The position numbers and the translations under genes were made by a program. A DNA stretch of 29,583 nucleotides from a virus, in the IMG/VR virus record IMGVR_UViG_3300013233_000053, positions 1 to 29,583 of that record; one strand, 5' to 3'. Positions 1-8,730 of the stretch are shown piece by piece; position 1 is the stretch's first letter, and each line of letters begins with the position of its first letter. The notes under the pieces are model-generated. The model was not told the origin of the DNA. It did no database searches and worked only from the letters and a program-made list of their open reading frames with translations.

Positions 1-568
1 GGGCTGTATTATTAACATATTTGCTAAAATTATCCGAAAATGGAGACATTGTACCGTTGTGCTGATATCCTGGGTTCTTGTCACCTGTTACTCTTGCCGA
101 CTTTACTTCTCGCTTAGTAACGGCTATCTCCTTACCGTATCGCAACGTTAAGTATTCTAATGTTTCGCCTGTGGCTCTGTGGTTATTACTTAAATGAATA
201 TCGAGTTCCTTATATCGCTTAAATAATTCATACGCATTTTCTGTGTCTGCATGTGCTTTTTTAGCTAATATATCGCGGAATACTGGTAATCTAATAGAAA
301 AATGATATGACTTTATTAGAAGTAATAACTTGGCTTGACTTAAGGTTAACTTACCGAAATTTGTCTTGGTGATTACTCCTTTTGGTATTATTTTATTATT
401 TACAAAGACATAGTTTTTGGTTTTATTATCTAATTGATCACTGTTGTTATTAAAATATTCTTCTTTACTTATATTATGCGTGTTAGTGAAATGATTTTGG
501 TAATTATAATTGGTTATTGCTGTGTTACATATCTTACAAGTACACGATTTTGGTAATACTTTTTCCAT
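1..568 (-). CDS. Putative free-standing homing-type endonuclease inserted in the split terminase gene (partial)
   Basis: An open frame starts at ATG 568 and runs off the left edge (189 complete codons visible). It begins 5 nt after the stop of the terminase N-fragment, preceded by a short AAGG. Residues about 9-31 form a zinc-finger pattern: C-x2-C (CKIC) followed by H-x4-H. Near the visible end lies a GDKNPGYQHNG...SPFS segment, which I recall from nuclease-like ORFs of marine T4-like phages; this is memory, not a search. The codons are AT-rich and rich in Asn and Lys, unlike the flanking structural genes. Its place directly behind an N-intein matches fractured genes, where a nuclease gene separates the two intein halves. 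No catalytic motif is visible in this part. Inference: a homing endonuclease that spreads the interrupted terminase allele. Confidence 0.65.
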   Translation of the reverse strand, partial: MEKVLPKSCTCKICNTAITNYNYQNHFTNTHNISKEEYFNNNSDQLDNKTKNYVFVNNKIIPKGVITKTNFGKLTLSQAKLLLLIKSYHFSIRLPVFRDILAKKAHADTENAYELFKRYKELDIHLSNNHRATGETLEYLTLRYGKEIAVTKREVKSARVTGDKNPGYQHNGTMSPFSDNFSKYVNNTA

Positions 569-573
569 GTGCC

Positions 574-723
574 TTAATTTTGTTCGTCCGATTTTGCCAA
601 GTTCACTAGCCAATTTTCTAATTTTGTTACTGCTTTTTGCTTTAATGTCATTTCGTTCCATAGTAATTCACCGATTTGTGTGTGTGTATTATTATTTATG
701 ACAGTTGTGTTGTATGCGCAACA
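574..723 (-). other. N-terminal half of an atypically split intein (IntN, 49 residues)
   Basis: After Walker A residues S81-R-Q-T-G-K86 the protein changes to CCAYNTTVINNNTH. This fits intein block A: a Cys at position 1, then Asn-Thr-x-Val (C-x3-N-T-x-V). Splicing would rejoin GK to a downstream Thr or Ser and restore GK[T/S]. The segment ends with a stop after 49 residues and has no block B (TxxH) or later block. The break therefore lies between blocks A and B, as in the known AceL-TerL split intein, whose IntN is about 25 residues. The IntC half is expected beyond the left edge. Confidence 0.8.
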
Positions 724-981
724 TTTTCCAGTTTGTCTCGATAATAAATTTATACTGAAGCGATTATTAGTATACGTCTCAATCAGTTCTTTTTGATATT
801 CAAAAGGGTCATATAGTAGTTTACCTTTAGTAGGATGTTGTATGTGGAAGTATTTACTAAGGAAGTAAGCCGGGCCAGTTTTTGGGTCGCAGCATTTAGC
901 AAAATCAAGTAATTCTGTATTATCGTAAGATAGTGTACTGTGGGGTTTTTTAATTAGTCCAGTGTCGTTGCTATGTGCCAT
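574..981 (-). CDS. terL (N-fragment): Terminase large subunit gp17, N-terminal fragment fused to IntN
   Basis: 135 residues. Residues 1-86 are the start of the T4-type DNA-packaging ATPase. DPFEYQKELIETY (about 58-70) is the adenine-binding region, and FSINLLSRQTGK ends in the Walker A Lys at 86. Residue 87 begins an intein, so this polypeptide cannot be an ATPase alone. It must be trans-spliced to a C-terminal fragment to give gp17, the motor that pumps DNA into the prohead with small subunit gp16. The ATG lacks a Shine-Dalgarno. TTAAATA ends 5 nt before it, and a terminator lies just upstream, so the gene is probably transcribed on its own. A plain truncated pseudogene is the alternative. 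I consider it unlikely because the intein start is precise and the gene is essential. Confidence 0.85.
   Translation of the reverse strand: MAHSNDTGLIKKPHSTLSYDNTELLDFAKCCDPKTGPAYFLSKYFHIQHPTKGKLLYDPFEYQKELIETYTNNRFSINLLSRQTGKCCAYNTTVINNNTHTQIGELLWNEMTLKQKAVTKLENWLVNLAKSDEQN
693..700 (-). promoter_or_regulatory. Possible late promoter for the inserted nuclease ORF
   Basis: CATAAATA (minus strand) differs at one base from the T4 late consensus TATAAATA. It lies inside the IntN coding sequence, about 125 nt before the nuclease ATG. The region is AT-rich, so this could be chance. Confidence 0.3.
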
Positions 982-986
982 AGTAG

Positions 987-993
987 TATTTAA
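987..993 (-). promoter_or_regulatory. Late promoter element abutting the terL start
   Basis: TTAAATA ends exactly 5 nt (CTACT) before the ATG at 981. No Shine-Dalgarno is present. It is one mismatch from the ATAAATA core and has the same 5-nt spacing as the elements before the gp13, gp14 and 12222 genes. Confidence 0.5.
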
Positions 994-1014
994 CGTTATA
1001 TTATATTAAGCAAT

Positions 1015-1036
1015 AAAAAACCTGCCGGAGCAAGTT
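1015..1036 (-). terminator. Rho-independent terminator between the 828-aa gene and terL
   Basis: On the minus strand AACTTGC pairs with GCAGGTT (one G-U) around a TCCG tetraloop of the UNCG class, followed by a run of T. It lies about 90 nt past the stop of the 828-aa gene and ends its transcript before terL. Confidence 0.7.
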
Positions 1037-1124
1037 AGTTTCACTTTTAAATAACAGTAGCGATGCTGTCATTGCGGCTGTAAACGCCAACCGTACCCAT
1101 AAGGGTCCTAAGGTTTATTCTTTA

Positions 1125-3611
1125 TTAGCCACGTTCATTAAATGCTTTATATAATTTCATAAAGCTGGCTGATTCATTAACTGCCATTGGGTTATCGCCG
1201 CCTGCTACTGGTTTATAGCTATTCTTTGGATCATTTAATCCGCCACTTAGTTTGTTAATAACAACGTCTGCCTTAGCAATCAATTCCTGTGGTGTGTTTG
1301 AATGTTGAATATCACGTTCTTCTTCTATATTATCATCTGGTACCATCCCTTCGCCATCACAAGACACGCATATTGTCATCTCTGTGCCTTGGGGGGCTAG
1401 CATTTCCATTTCACCGGTGCCATTGCAATCTGGGCAGGTTTTATACCCAGTCATATCAAAATCACTTGAGCTGTAATCTTTATCGTACTGTAACCCTTTG
1501 CCGTCATCTTCATCTTCTTCGACGTATCCGGAGAACTCGCCTTCTCTGTCGAAATTTGATTGTTTTGTGCCTGAACCACCGCACGTACTACAGCTATATG
1601 ATTTACCGTCTATTGTTACTTCCTGGTCTTCGCCGTTACAATCTGGGCACGCTTCGTCACGCACATCGGAATGTGCTATACCGGAACCACCGCAATCATC
1701 GCACGTTTGTCCTCTATAGCCGCCATCACCATCACACGTTGAGCATACTTCAGGAGCTGCTGATTCGTCTGCTATGACATATTCATCAGCATCGTCTTTT
1801 GTCCATTCGCCGCAGTAGCCGCATTTTGAATCTTGTGCTGCGCTGCTATACGTCATTTCACCGGCTTCACCACAGTGTGGACAAGTACTTTCATCATCCA
1901 TTTCTGTAACTTGTCTCGCTCGATCATCATCTTCGTAGTTACCATCATTATACATATAATCAACATCCTGTGCTTTAGCTTGCGATGTGACATCATCTTC
2001 GTAGTTACCATCATTATACATATAACCATCAGCTTGTGTCTTGTGTTGTGCTGCGCCGGCTTCGTCAATTTCGCCTGTTAAGCTAAATGATGGTGCTTGT
2101 GCGTCCATTGGCATCATTTCGTCTGTTACTGGCTCCTGTACCGGAGCATCAACCATTGCCATCATATCGCCCATTGTTAGTCCTTTACCTGCTGGTACCG
2201 ATTGTGTTACTGGAGCACCGGTATCTACTACGTCAGCTTCTGCTTGGCCGAAACCTGCGTTTGCTAGCATTGCTGATAATTCATCAACTGATTCACCGCT
2301 GCCTGTGATTGTCATTGTATCGTTATCAGGCTGATCTGGGTTTTGTGTTTGTGTGATTGTTACTTCTTCGTTTAAATCCATTAACTTATTGAACTCAGTT
2401 GTCATACTTTCGTATACACTGTTGTTAGTGATATCAGCCGAAACGATGTCGCTTAAATGAACGTTAATTGTTTTGTTATCTGCGTTGCGTACTACAGTGC
2501 CATAATGGCCACTTGGGCTACGTGTTGCGAAAATGCCAGTGCGATCGCCTTCGGGGTCACTGCAGATACTAGGATCTAATACAACTGGTGTGCCATCTTG
2601 TAACCGTTTTCTGTGATCTGGGTTTGTGCTATCAAAGGTAGTGTACTCAATTTCGTCTTCGTTAAAATCGTCGTACTCGCCAAATGCTTCATTTACATTT
2701 TTACTTTCATCATTTGATGAACCACCGCCATATCCATTGTAAAAATCTGCGCTTTTATTATATCTTTCATTTGGGTGTTGAACTTTTCCGCCTGCTTTTT
2801 TAATATACTTTTGCTGGTCGCCCATTTTAAGTGATCCGTAATCTTTACCATCTGCTTTGGCAAGAGATTGTGCTTTAGTTAAAATAGTATCTCTATCAAC
2901 TGATTCTGTGCTAAATTGATTATCTTCTTCTCCGTTGTTCATCATTTTGAATGTTTCTTCGTCGTAAGTAGTAGTATCGCCGTTTGCTGTTACTTTAACA
3001 TTATTTCCTTGTTTTTGAATTTGTGTGTTATCTTCTTCTAATTCGCTGTTTAAATCAGCTAATACTCGTTGTACTAATTCTTCTACGCTTTCACCGCCTT
3101 GTGCTACTGCTGCTTCTACTGCTGCGAATGTTGCTTCTGCTCCGTGCTCTGCTATAGTTTGTTCTGCGGTGTCCATGATCGCTTGTGCTACTTCTGTAGT
3201 ACTAATGCCTGTATCTTCGCCCATGAATTTTTCGTACTCTGGGAAATCTTTTTCTGCTTTATTAGCGTCTTGTTCCCACGGTTCGCCTTTGTAAGATCGT
3301 TGCTCGCTATCAAACGCATACGCATCTTCGTCGTTAGCTGGATCGTAATCTTCGATTTCACCTTCTGTTGTTTGTTGCTTAACACTAGCGTGGCCTGCGC
3401 GGAAATCACCACCTTCATGTGCCCATTGATCAGATACGTTAATATCACTAATCTTTGTACCGGCTTCTGCTGCTTCTTTGCCTGCTGCGTAAGCTTTTGG
3501 ATACTCAATTTCACGGCCTTCGTATCCGTTGATATTATTTTCTGTTACTGGCGTATACGCTATAGTATCCATACTTTCTAGTAATGTTTTCATTGTTTGC
3601 ATTTGGCTCAT
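1125..3611 (-). CDS. Large acidic protein with DnaJ-like zinc modules, probable virion/prohead component
   Basis: 828 residues, very acidic. The N-terminus reads MSQMQTMKTLLESMDTI, and L-L-E12 fits the (L/I)-x-E cleavage site of T4-type prohead proteases. Residues about 545-590 hold two 22-residue repeats with core YMYNDGNYEDD. Residues about 575-755 hold eight C-x2-C pairs, most of DnaJ type (CSTCDGDGG, CDDCGGSG, CPDCNGED, CSTCGGSG, CPDCNGTG, CVSCDGEG). There is no J domain, so this is not a DnaJ co-chaperone. The C-terminus, rich in ESASFMKLYKAF, resembles marine T4-like structural proteins as I remember them. Its ATG overlaps the preceding stop (ATGA), so it is translationally coupled to the 195-aa gene. 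It lies between gp16 and gp17, where T4 has nothing. Function is inferred only. Confidence 0.75.
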   Translation of the reverse strand: MSQMQTMKTLLESMDTIAYTPVTENNINGYEGREIEYPKAYAAGKEAAEAGTKISDINVSDQWAHEGGDFRAGHASVKQQTTEGEIEDYDPANDEDAYAFDSEQRSYKGEPWEQDANKAEKDFPEYEKFMGEDTGISTTEVAQAIMDTAEQTIAEHGAEATFAAVEAAVAQGGESVEELVQRVLADLNSELEEDNTQIQKQGNNVKVTANGDTTTYDEETFKMMNNGEEDNQFSTESVDRDTILTKAQSLAKADGKDYGSLKMGDQQKYIKKAGGKVQHPNERYNKSADFYNGYGGGSSNDESKNVNEAFGEYDDFNEDEIEYTTFDSTNPDHRKRLQDGTPVVLDPSICSDPEGDRTGIFATRSPSGHYGTVVRNADNKTINVHLSDIVSADITNNSVYESMTTEFNKLMDLNEEVTITQTQNPDQPDNDTMTITGSGESVDELSAMLANAGFGQAEADVVDTGAPVTQSVPAGKGLTMGDMMAMVDAPVQEPVTDEMMPMDAQAPSFSLTGEIDEAGAAQHKTQADGYMYNDGNYEDDVTSQAKAQDVDYMYNDGNYEDDDRARQVTEMDDESTCPHCGEAGEMTYSSAAQDSKCGYCGEWTKDDADEYVIADESAAPEVCSTCDGDGGYRGQTCDDCGGSGIAHSDVRDEACPDCNGEDQEVTIDGKSYSCSTCGGSGTKQSNFDREGEFSGYVEEDEDDGKGLQYDKDYSSSDFDMTGYKTCPDCNGTGEMEMLAPQGTEMTICVSCDGEGMVPDDNIEEERDIQHSNTPQELIAKADVVINKLSGGLNDPKNSYKPVAGGDNPMAVNESASFMKLYKAFNERG
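1925..2025. repeat. Pair of exact 35-bp direct repeats inside the 828-aa gene
   Basis: Bases 1925-1959 and 1991-2025 are identical and offset by 66 bp (22 codons). They encode the two copies of the YMYNDGNYEDD module. The perfect nucleotide identity indicates a recent in-frame duplication. Confidence 0.9.
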
Positions 3612-7419: not shown

Positions 7420-8658
7420 TTACAACCAGTTTATATCTGATAGTACCTTACTTAAATCATTATCAACATTGCCGGATATTGCTTGCTCGATTAGCACTAA
7501 GTGATCATCATAATTCTCCCACAAGTGTAATAACTGTATTCCTTTTTTAGCACATAAATCTATCTTACTTTGGTGATACTTCAACCAACCATCATAACCC
7601 CCATATACTTCTGGCCTATGCCAGTACGTGCCATTAAACTCTATAGCCAAATGAAACTCCGGCAAGTAGATATCAATCTCCTTGGGCGGTATTATATTCC
7701 TTGTATTTTGTATTACTACGGTCTCTATGTTTTCATTGATCATTAAGACTACATTTTTTTCAGCAAACGATACGTTCTTACTTACTACTGTTAAATTATG
7801 TGTTTTCATATAATTAGATACTGTAGTAATATCAACTGCTAAGTTAGCAGCTATCTCAGTTAACGTTTTGTTTTTATTGTGATGCTGATCTGACATCCAC
7901 GTTGCGTCAGTTAACTTATTCCTAGAATCTTCGGATATATGTGACTGATTAAAGTATTCTACTCCGTACCGTAATTTAGAAGTATTTGCTGCTTTTTTTC
8001 GATTAGTATATGCTTGATCGCCGTACTTTTCTAATTTAGTTAATCGCCCCTTTTCTACATTACCGTATCCTTTAGTACTGTACTTTTCTAAGCAAGTTGA
8101 TATGCGTTGTTGTGCGTTACAATAATTAGCATCTCCGTACTTCGCTAACTTAGTCTGACTTGCTTTGATTCTATTATTGAACGTTGCGTCGCTGTACTTC
8201 GCTAACTTGGTACTCTTTATTTTAGATGGATTGCAGTAATTTGCGTCGCTGTACTTCGCTAACTTAGTACTCTTTATTTTAGATGGATTGCAGTAATTTG
8301 CGTCTCCGTATTTTTCTAACTTAGTTGTGCGAGACTTCAGCGTTATGTCCGCATATTCTGACTTTGATTTTTTTGGGCGGGTTAAACGTTGCTCGCTTAG
8401 GTGGTTAGATAAACACTTGCAGTCCTTTTCGTTTCCGCAATTCAAATAACCGAGTTTTATGTTTTTAAATGGGCGAAGTTTGTTGTACTTACATTTATTA
8501 CTTTCTTGCGACATTGCGCTATATACTTTATCAGCAAAATTATCACTAGAAGATAATGTATTATCATTGACCCATTTGACTAACTTTTCATCCTTCTTGA
8601 TCATGCTAGTGTAGTGTCTAGGGTATTGATTGATTATGTCTTGTATTATAGTCTTCAT
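7420..8658 (-). CDS. Free-standing homing endonuclease, Vsr-like EDxHD type, with 19-residue repeat array
   Basis: 412 residues from ATG 8658, chosen because AGGA precedes it; the ATG at 8679 has none. The N-terminal third has a Cys set (C56, C74, C80, C82 from this start) that may bind zinc. Next come about seven 19-residue repeats of type TKLEKYGDANYCNPSKIKS, then a helix-turn-helix (KTLTEIAANLAVDITTVSNYMKTH). The C-terminal nuclease domain reads EIDIYLPEFHLAIEFNGTYWHRPE...YHQSKIDLCAKKGIQLLHLWENYDD, the Vsr-related signature of phage homing nucleases. The repeats probably read DNA modularly. It lies between sheath and tube genes, whose DNA is the likely target. It has a canonical TATAAATA promoter. 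Confidence 0.85.
   Translation of the reverse strand: MKTIIQDIINQYPRHYTSMIKKDEKLVKWVNDNTLSSSDNFADKVYSAMSQESNKCKYNKLRPFKNIKLGYLNCGNEKDCKCLSNHLSEQRLTRPKKSKSEYADITLKSRTTKLEKYGDANYCNPSKIKSTKLAKYSDANYCNPSKIKSTKLAKYSDATFNNRIKASQTKLAKYGDANYCNAQQRISTCLEKYSTKGYGNVEKGRLTKLEKYGDQAYTNRKKAANTSKLRYGVEYFNQSHISEDSRNKLTDATWMSDQHHNKNKTLTEIAANLAVDITTVSNYMKTHNLTVVSKNVSFAEKNVVLMINENIETVVIQNTRNIIPPKEIDIYLPEFHLAIEFNGTYWHRPEVYGGYDGWLKYHQSKIDLCAKKGIQLLHLWENYDDHLVLIEQAISGNVDNDLSKVLSDINWL
7927..8325 (-). repeat. Array of seven 19-codon repeats in the homing endonuclease gene
   Basis: Units begin TKLEKYG, TKLAKYS, TKLAKYS, TKLAKYG, TCLEKYS, TKLEKYG and TSKLRYG, each followed by a D/xNYxN core and a basic stretch. Two neighbouring units near 8211-8324 are almost identical in DNA with a 57-bp period, so the array has recently expanded. 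Confidence 0.85.
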
Positions 8659-8730
8659 GGTTCCTATATAAATACCCATTGGTTACGGTTCATTCGTTAA
8701 TACTTATACCACAAGAATGCGAAGTCAAAA

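What the first reader, a model, noticed from the sequence alone, without database searches (positions are those of the whole stretch)
1..981. Fractured large terminase gene: very short N-intein in Walker A, then an inserted nuclease-like ORF
The gp17 frame reaches the Walker A Lys (SRQTGK), switches to an intein block A (C-x3-N-T-x-V), stops after 49 more residues, and is followed after 5 nt by a separate zinc-finger ORF. The split lies between blocks A and B, giving an atypically short IntN, as described for AceL-TerL. Rejoining exactly at GK|T would restore the ATPase site, so packaging would depend on trans-splicing. The visible nuclease part has no known catalytic motif and may be a less usual family.
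Basis: partly seen in the sequence, partly recalled or inferred. Interest (0 to 1): 0.9.

Follow-up and report, generated by a model that had tools for sequence, protein, structure and literature searches.

The report
Phage motor gene split by intein
A virus keeps the gene for its essential DNA-packaging motor in two pieces with a DNA-cutting gene wedged between them, and self-joining tags at the cut ends should weld the two protein halves back together exactly in the motor's ATP-binding loop; comparison shows that this arrangement is common in environmental phages.

Summary
On the minus strand, a T4-type large-terminase (gp17) N-half (86 aa) ends at Walker A ...SRQTGK and continues into a 49-aa intein N-fragment. 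Five nt later starts a zinc-finger nuclease ORF that runs off the left end. A sibling contig (L004; 343-nt dovetail, 98% identical) supplies the missing part: the nuclease's EDxHD/Vsr-like catalytic domain, then one ORF of intein C-fragment (138 aa, ...ILSHN) plus the remaining 438 aa of gp17. Joining the exteins gives SRQTGK|TTTACGYLLW, identical over that stretch to an uninterrupted relative (L035). The family search recovered 56 split and 18 contiguous TerL inteins at this site; 37 of the 56 have the same nuclease between the halves. So this is a "fractured gene" with a split intein and an EDxHD homing endonuclease. The system type is known, but the site differs from the AceL/GOS-TerL site as I reconstruct it. 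Two features look new: amphipathic helices on both split ends (a cut hairpin, intact in one contiguous relative), and relatives that encode the nuclease out of frame inside a still-contiguous intein. Trans-splicing and homing are inferred, not shown.

The parts
724..981 (-). gp17 (large terminase) N-extein, 86 aa, ending at the Walker A Lys (...SRQTGK)
   Evidence: PHROG 36964 E 4.8e-13; 57-67% identical to uninterrupted relatives L035 and L056
577..723 (-). Intein N-fragment, 49 aa: Cys1 and block A (CCAYNTTV...IGEL, about 25 aa), then an amphipathic helical tail (MTLKQKAVTKLENWLVNLAK); stop codon at 576-574
   Evidence: alignment with IntN of Atu_ph07, LR756500/LR756501, L007, L036
1..568 (-). 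N-terminal part of the EDxHD/Vsr-like homing endonuclease ORF (start ATG 568; alternative ATG 661); runs off the contig and continues in L004:343-951, giving about 390 aa in all
   Evidence: catalytic domain in L004: DUF559 3e-7, I-Bth0305I
476..538 (-). Zinc-finger-like segment CKIC...HFTNTH (C-x2-C-x11-H-x4-H)
   Evidence: sequence; an equivalent finger is present in most complete relatives and the family profile matches the Ros zinc finger weakly (2jsp, E 0.022)
1125..3611 (-). Upstream 828-aa acidic, Cys-rich protein: context only. In intact relatives a comparably acidic ORF lies upstream of gp17, and gp17, a ~390-650-aa protein, gp32 and uvsX follow in order; L004 shows the downstream part (gp17 C-half, 813-aa protein, gp32)
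   Evidence: homology of the upstream ORFs was not tested

Best explanation
The gp17 gene of this jumbo-phage relative (closest TerLs are of the PA5oct / Atu_ph07 / Phosso / RaK2 group) is fractured at the Walker A codon pair GK|T by a mobile split-intein element. Three genes are made in order: (1) gp17 N-half fused to a 49-aa IntN; (2) a separate, zinc-finger-bearing EDxHD/Vsr-like homing endonuclease; (3) a 138-aa IntC fused to the other 438 aa of gp17. Proposed working: the two translated halves find each other through the intein fragments, probably helped by the amphipathic helices at the end of IntN and the start of IntC, which would re-form a helical hairpin on the Hint fold. Cys1 and the IntC His-Asn with Thr+1 then carry out trans-splicing and restore an unbroken P-loop (SRQTGKTT) and a 524-aa motor protein. 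The nuclease would cut gp17 alleles that lack the insertion at this conserved codon stretch, so that repair copies the whole cassette. Shown: the gene order, precise junction, catalytic residues, nuclease family and patchy distribution. Inferred: splicing, helix docking, cleavage specificity and homing.
For: Continuation: window 1-343 dovetails L004 343-1 at 97.96% identity without gaps; in the shared nuclease codons 5 changes are synonymous and 2 not. IntC + C-extein in one ORF, L004:1051-2781; PDB matches to T4 gp17 (3e-38) and to gp41-1, VidaL and CatC inteins. Precise rejoining: SRQTGK|TTTACGYLLW equals uninterrupted L035; extein lengths 86+438=524 against 520 and 528 in L002/L003. The family search recovered 56 split and 18 contiguous inteins at this site, 37 of the 56 with the same nuclease between the halves, including cultured Atu_ph07 (split without nuclease). 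Nuclease: invariant D, E-F-D-G-x-Y-W-H and E in 15 sequences; DUF559 3e-7; profile match to I-Bth0305I E 3e-4; fold matches I-Bth0305I (prob 1.0, TMt 0.69) and Vsr. Mobility: closest TerLs lack the element (L035 83%, L056 81% C-extein identity) or carry another intein (L034 78%), whereas the closest IntCs (L113, L114, Atu_ph07, L115; 44-49%) sit in TerLs only 49-55% identical. No RNA intron found. No second gp17 in the window.
Against: The two halves come from two contigs of closely related, not identical, genomes; no single contig spans the locus in this lineage. The genome is a fragment, so an intact gp17 elsewhere cannot be excluded. Splicing, nuclease cutting and homing were not and cannot be tested here. 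The IntN is divergent (23-36% identical to other N-extein+IntN segments). The nuclease model is confident only in its C-terminal part.
Confidence: 0.9

Rival explanations
1. gp17 is interrupted by a self-splicing RNA intron with a homing endonuclease, and the halves are joined at RNA level.
For: A homing-type endonuclease ORF lies between gene halves, as in group I introns; phage terL introns are known (ICP1, PMC10448857).
Against: No Rfam intron match in window 1-1500 or L004 1-3000 even at E up to 1 (one irrelevant cspA match, E 0.89). The flanking ORFs extend in frame into intein blocks A, B, F and G with catalytic residues, and relatives carry the same region as one contiguous intein ORF.
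Confidence: 0.02
2. The gene is broken: the N-half is a remnant left by invasion, the element no longer splices, and packaging uses another terminase copy elsewhere in the genome.
For: The genome is incomplete. Some relatives carry extra TerL-like ORFs (261-aa ATPase-type paralogue in L034; 272-aa in LR756500).
Against: All splicing residues and both extein halves are intact; the locus sits in the gp17 position in gene order; the paralogues seen elsewhere are truncated; the window has no second copy; dozens of lineages keep both halves open.
Confidence: 0.06
3. The contig end and L004 are an assembly chimera, and the true gene is contiguous.
For: Two contigs had to be combined across a 343-nt overlap.
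Against: The IntN stop codon and nuclease start lie inside the window itself, hundreds of bases from its end. The same order N-IntN / nuclease / IntC-C occurs on single contigs elsewhere (L005-L008, L133, L136, L190, LR756500 and more).
Confidence: 0.02

Closest known systems
Fractured genes with split inteins and an interposed homing endonuclease (Dassa et al. 2009, NAR 37:2560; cited in PMC12350094, PMC7891396; the paper itself was not held)
   Same: Essential phage gene in two ORFs, IntN at the end of the first, IntC at the start of the second, free-standing EDxHD/Vsr-like endonuclease between
   Different: TerL Walker A site; split before block B instead of at the usual central break point; helical tails on both fragments. 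Whether Dassa et al. already listed a TerL case could not be checked
AceL-TerL and GOS-TerL atypical split inteins (PMC11766414)
   Same: Split intein in phage TerL with a very short IntN (25 and 37 aa), broken between blocks A and B
   Different: Other insertion site: GOS-TerL uses +1 Cys, and VP-1 and Va1 show such split inteins at |CSFLGS / |CNFLGS far downstream; here the site is GK|T. IntN is 49 aa with an added helix
Agrobacterium phage Atu_ph07 TerL (GenBank ASV44708 + ASV44707)
   Same: Same GK|T site, IntC 47% identical, same helical tails on both fragments
   Different: Ser1 instead of Cys1, and no nuclease between the two ORFs
I-Bth0305I (PDB 3r3p), EDxHD homing endonuclease
   Same: Catalytic domain fold and motif
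   Different: The PDB record calls it a mobile intron protein; here it sits between split-intein halves and carries an added zinc finger
ShiLan-type out-of-frame HNH endonuclease (PMC11855218)
   Same: Precedent for an endonuclease hidden in an alternative frame of a continuous host ORF, as in relatives L118, L121 and L153
   Different: ShiLan lacks any detectable splicing domain; in these relatives the nested gene lies inside a true intein and is of the EDxHD type. The window itself is not overprinted

Membership tests
Fractured gene / split intein (Dassa type) | Host gene in two separate ORFs whose joined exteins restore a conserved, uninterrupted protein | tested here: met
   86+438 aa, junction identical to L035
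Fractured gene / split intein (Dassa type) | IntN (block A, Cys/Ser1) ends ORF 1; IntC (blocks B, F, G, His-Asn) begins ORF 2; +1 Cys/Ser/Thr | tested here: met
   CCAYNTTV; ADKH; HLYYSNDILSHN|T
Fractured gene / split intein (Dassa type) | Homing endonuclease ORF between the halves | tested here: met
Fractured gene / split intein (Dassa type) | Trans-splicing yields the full-length host protein | not testable with these tools
   needs co-expression of the two ORFs
EDxHD/Vsr-like homing endonuclease | Conserved D ... E-x-D-G-x-Y-W-H ... E pattern and Vsr/I-Bth0305I fold | tested here: met
   (invariant D248, E259, D261, H266, E295 in L004 numbering)
EDxHD/Vsr-like homing endonuclease | Cuts the uninterrupted allele at the insertion site and promotes homing | not testable with these tools
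   only the patchy distribution supports it
AceL/GOS-TerL intein (same allele) | Inserted at the same TerL codon with +1 Cys | tested here: not met
   GK|T with Thr+1 here; GOS-TerL is Ser1/Cys+1 (PMC11766414). The exact AceL codon is recalled, not looked up
Atypically split intein (works like AceL/Cat) | Break between block A and block B, short IntN | tested here: met
   IntN 49 aa, IntC 138 aa with block B in IntC
Group I/II intron | Recognisable catalytic RNA | tested here: not met

The most novel reading that the evidence does not exclude
This TerL site shows how fractured genes arise. A homing endonuclease gene is first carried out of frame inside a contiguous intein (L118, L121, L153/L155; partial L117, L120), with the intein frame kept open across all 279-304 nuclease codons. 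A single stop codon then turns the intein into a split pair with the nuclease between the halves, and the other frame decays. In the lineages with helical tails, including the window, the split falls in the loop of a helical hairpin, whose two helices then serve as docking handles for the short IntN. Deletion of the nuclease can re-fuse the halves into one mini-intein (L119).
Probability: 0.4. Interest if true: 0.8.

Novelty: new variant of a known kind. Interest (0 to 1): 0.62.

Why it matters
TerL powers genome packaging and is a standard phage marker gene; here it is functional only if protein trans-splicing works, and gene callers will report two short fragments. The same site holds dozens of divergent, naturally split inteins with IntN fragments of 30-77 aa, a class of which few members have been described and which is sought for protein labelling. 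The contiguous, overprinted and split forms at one site make the origin of split inteins testable.

Tried and rejected
RNA intron: Rfam at E up to 1 gave nothing relevant. A second gp17 or C-extein in the window: none. The nuclease part visible in the window alone: only chance-level Pfam/PHROG matches; it was resolved only with the L004 continuation. Single-sequence PDB search with the nuclease: chance matches only; the profile was needed. A scan of genome contigs with IntC plus C-extein found no relative. Window-versus-AceL alignment from memory was not used as evidence. The Dassa 2009 paper is not held, so whether a TerL GK|T case was already in it stays open. Structure prediction of the two window fragments as a complex was not available, so a contiguous relative (L175) was folded instead.

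Full report
What is in the window. On the minus strand, ORF 981..574 encodes 135 aa. The first 86 match the N-terminus of T4-type large terminases and end at the Walker A sequence SRQTGK. The next 49 begin CCAYNTTV and end at a stop. Five bases further on, an ATG at 568 (AAGG upstream) opens a zinc-finger ORF that leaves the contig.

The missing half. A search with the nuclease fragment found L004, a 23-kb viral contig that dovetails with the window's left end: 343 nt, 97.96% identity, no gaps. It carries, in order: the rest of the nuclease (to L004:951), a 99-nt gap, then ORF 1051-2781 (TAAGG upstream) with an intein C-fragment ending ...LYYSNDILSHN and 438 aa of gp17 starting TTTACGYLLW. Joining the exteins gives 524 aa. 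Uninterrupted L035 reads SRQTGKTTTACGYLLW over the same stretch. L002 and L003 have intact 520- and 528-aa gp17 in the same gene order. The C-half matches T4 gp17 structures (3e-38) and intein structures including gp41-1, VidaL and CatC.

The nuclease. Its C-terminal domain matches DUF559 (3e-7, above the curated cut-off). A 15-sequence profile matches I-Bth0305I (3e-4) and, weakly, the Ros zinc finger. The predicted fold (reliable only in the C-terminal part) has I-Bth0305I as best match (probability 1.0, TM 0.69 on the target) and then Vsr. It is an EDxHD/Vsr-like homing endonuclease, the family named for fractured genes (PMC12350094 citing Dassa et al. 2009).

How general it is. A search with the IntC profile gave 80 viral loci. 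With other loci, 74 could be resolved: 56 split, 18 contiguous; in 37 of the 56 the same nuclease family lies between the halves. These are recovered counts, capped at 80 loci and including near-identical contigs; 48 distinct IntNs remain after removing duplicates and two unclear cases and adding the window and LR756501. Cultured or named cases include Atu_ph07 (two adjacent ORFs, no nuclease), Ackermannviridae such as Vibrio phages Kuja and VP-1 with contiguous inteins, LR756500 (nuclease between), LR756501 (halves about 12 kb apart), and Salicola phage SCTP-2, where terL pieces lie at 429, 256 and 216 kb.

Mobility. The closest TerLs lack the element (L035 83%, L056 81% over the C-extein) or hold an unrelated LAGLIDADG-type intein at the same codon (L034, 78%). 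The closest IntCs (L113 49%, L114 47%, Atu_ph07 47%, L115 44%) are in TerLs only 49-55% identical. Intein and host gene do not share one history, as expected for a mobile element.

The split point and the helices. The break lies after block A and before block B, the atypical position of AceL- and GOS-TerL (PMC11766414). In the window, Atu_ph07 and about fourteen others, IntC is long (138-156 aa) and both the IntN tail and the IntC start are amphipathic helices by prediction. IntN tails of this group have a mean hydrophobic moment of 0.46 against 0.28 in 32 short-IntC loci (no permutation of 20,000 reached the difference; related sequences are not independent, so this is descriptive). L175 has the same two helices joined in one chain; its model (mean pLDDT 79.5) shows helices 33-47 and 51-70 as consecutive elements between the first strands and the block B region of a Hint fold. 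I infer that the split inteins are cut in the hairpin loop and dock through the helices.

An unexpected neighbour state. In L118, L121 and L153/L155 the TerL ORF is contiguous (intein 421-443 aa), yet the complete nuclease gene (279-304 codons) sits in the +2 frame inside the intein. That frame has no stop over its whole length. Synonymous shuffles of the nuclease average 15-18 stops, with none at zero in 5,000; in eight complete split-locus nucleases plus L004 it has 21-64 stops. Between L118 and L121 the nuclease is 62% identical and the overlapping intein-frame reading only 30%: the nuclease is conserved and the other frame is merely kept open. A single stop would turn this into the window's arrangement. 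The direction of change is inference. [quoted passage not shown]

Verdict. The finding is real: a fractured gp17 with an atypically split, probably trans-splicing intein and an EDxHD homing endonuclease. It is a new variant of a known kind, at a TerL site that differs, as far as I could reconstruct, from the AceL/GOS site. Splicing, helix docking, cutting and homing remain to be shown at the bench.

Noticed in passing
L118:3090-3929, L121:3201-4040, L153 and L155:3033-3947 (partial L117, L120): Homing endonuclease gene nested in the +2 frame inside a contiguous TerL intein whose own frame stays fully open (0 stops against 15-18 expected, 0 of 5,000 synonymous shuffles).
   Followed up: partly
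L006:1826-4485 compared with L007 and L008: TerL is split a second time...FRQEFE|CVDGDT IntN, a GIY-YIG-like ORF, then IntC ...VISHN|TEFIGSS, giving three gene pieces; near-identical L007 and L008 have the empty site FRQEFETEFIGSS. L123, L133 and L135 also show a second IntC.
   Followed up: partly
L012, L021, L025 (Salicola phage SCTP-2, MF360958): TerL appears to be encoded in three pieces at about 429, 256 and 216 kb of a 440-kb genome; the N and middle pieces carry split-intein ends. The C piece was not examined for an IntC.
   Followed up: partly
L034:1482-4076 and 719-1504: Close relative with a LAGLIDADG-type contiguous intein at the same GK|T site, starting with Ala and showing a Trp in block B and a Cys in block F, as in class 3 inteins; next to it a separate 261-aa TerL ATPase-type paralogue with an intact Walker A.
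   Followed up: no
L018:6684-8573 and L015 (LR756500, LR756501): IntC ends SSQ|T and NLN|T instead of SHN|T: the penultimate His is replaced in both and the last Asn by Gln in one, so splicing chemistry may differ or be lost.
   Followed up: no
window 7420-8679 (-): Second Vsr-like endonuclease (419 aa, repeats of KLEKYGDANYCNPS type) between a 1094-aa ORF and a tail-tube gene; PHROG 3339 homing endonuclease E 1e-28, and 98.6 bits with the TerL-site nuclease profile: an apparent free-standing homing gene.
   Followed up: partly
L019 (Vibrio phage Va1) 4113-7575: TerL split at the downstream site ...QNFE|CVSGST with the nuclease and IntC read as one ORF before |CNFLGS: an EDxHD-type nuclease fused to the IntC side.
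   Followed up: no
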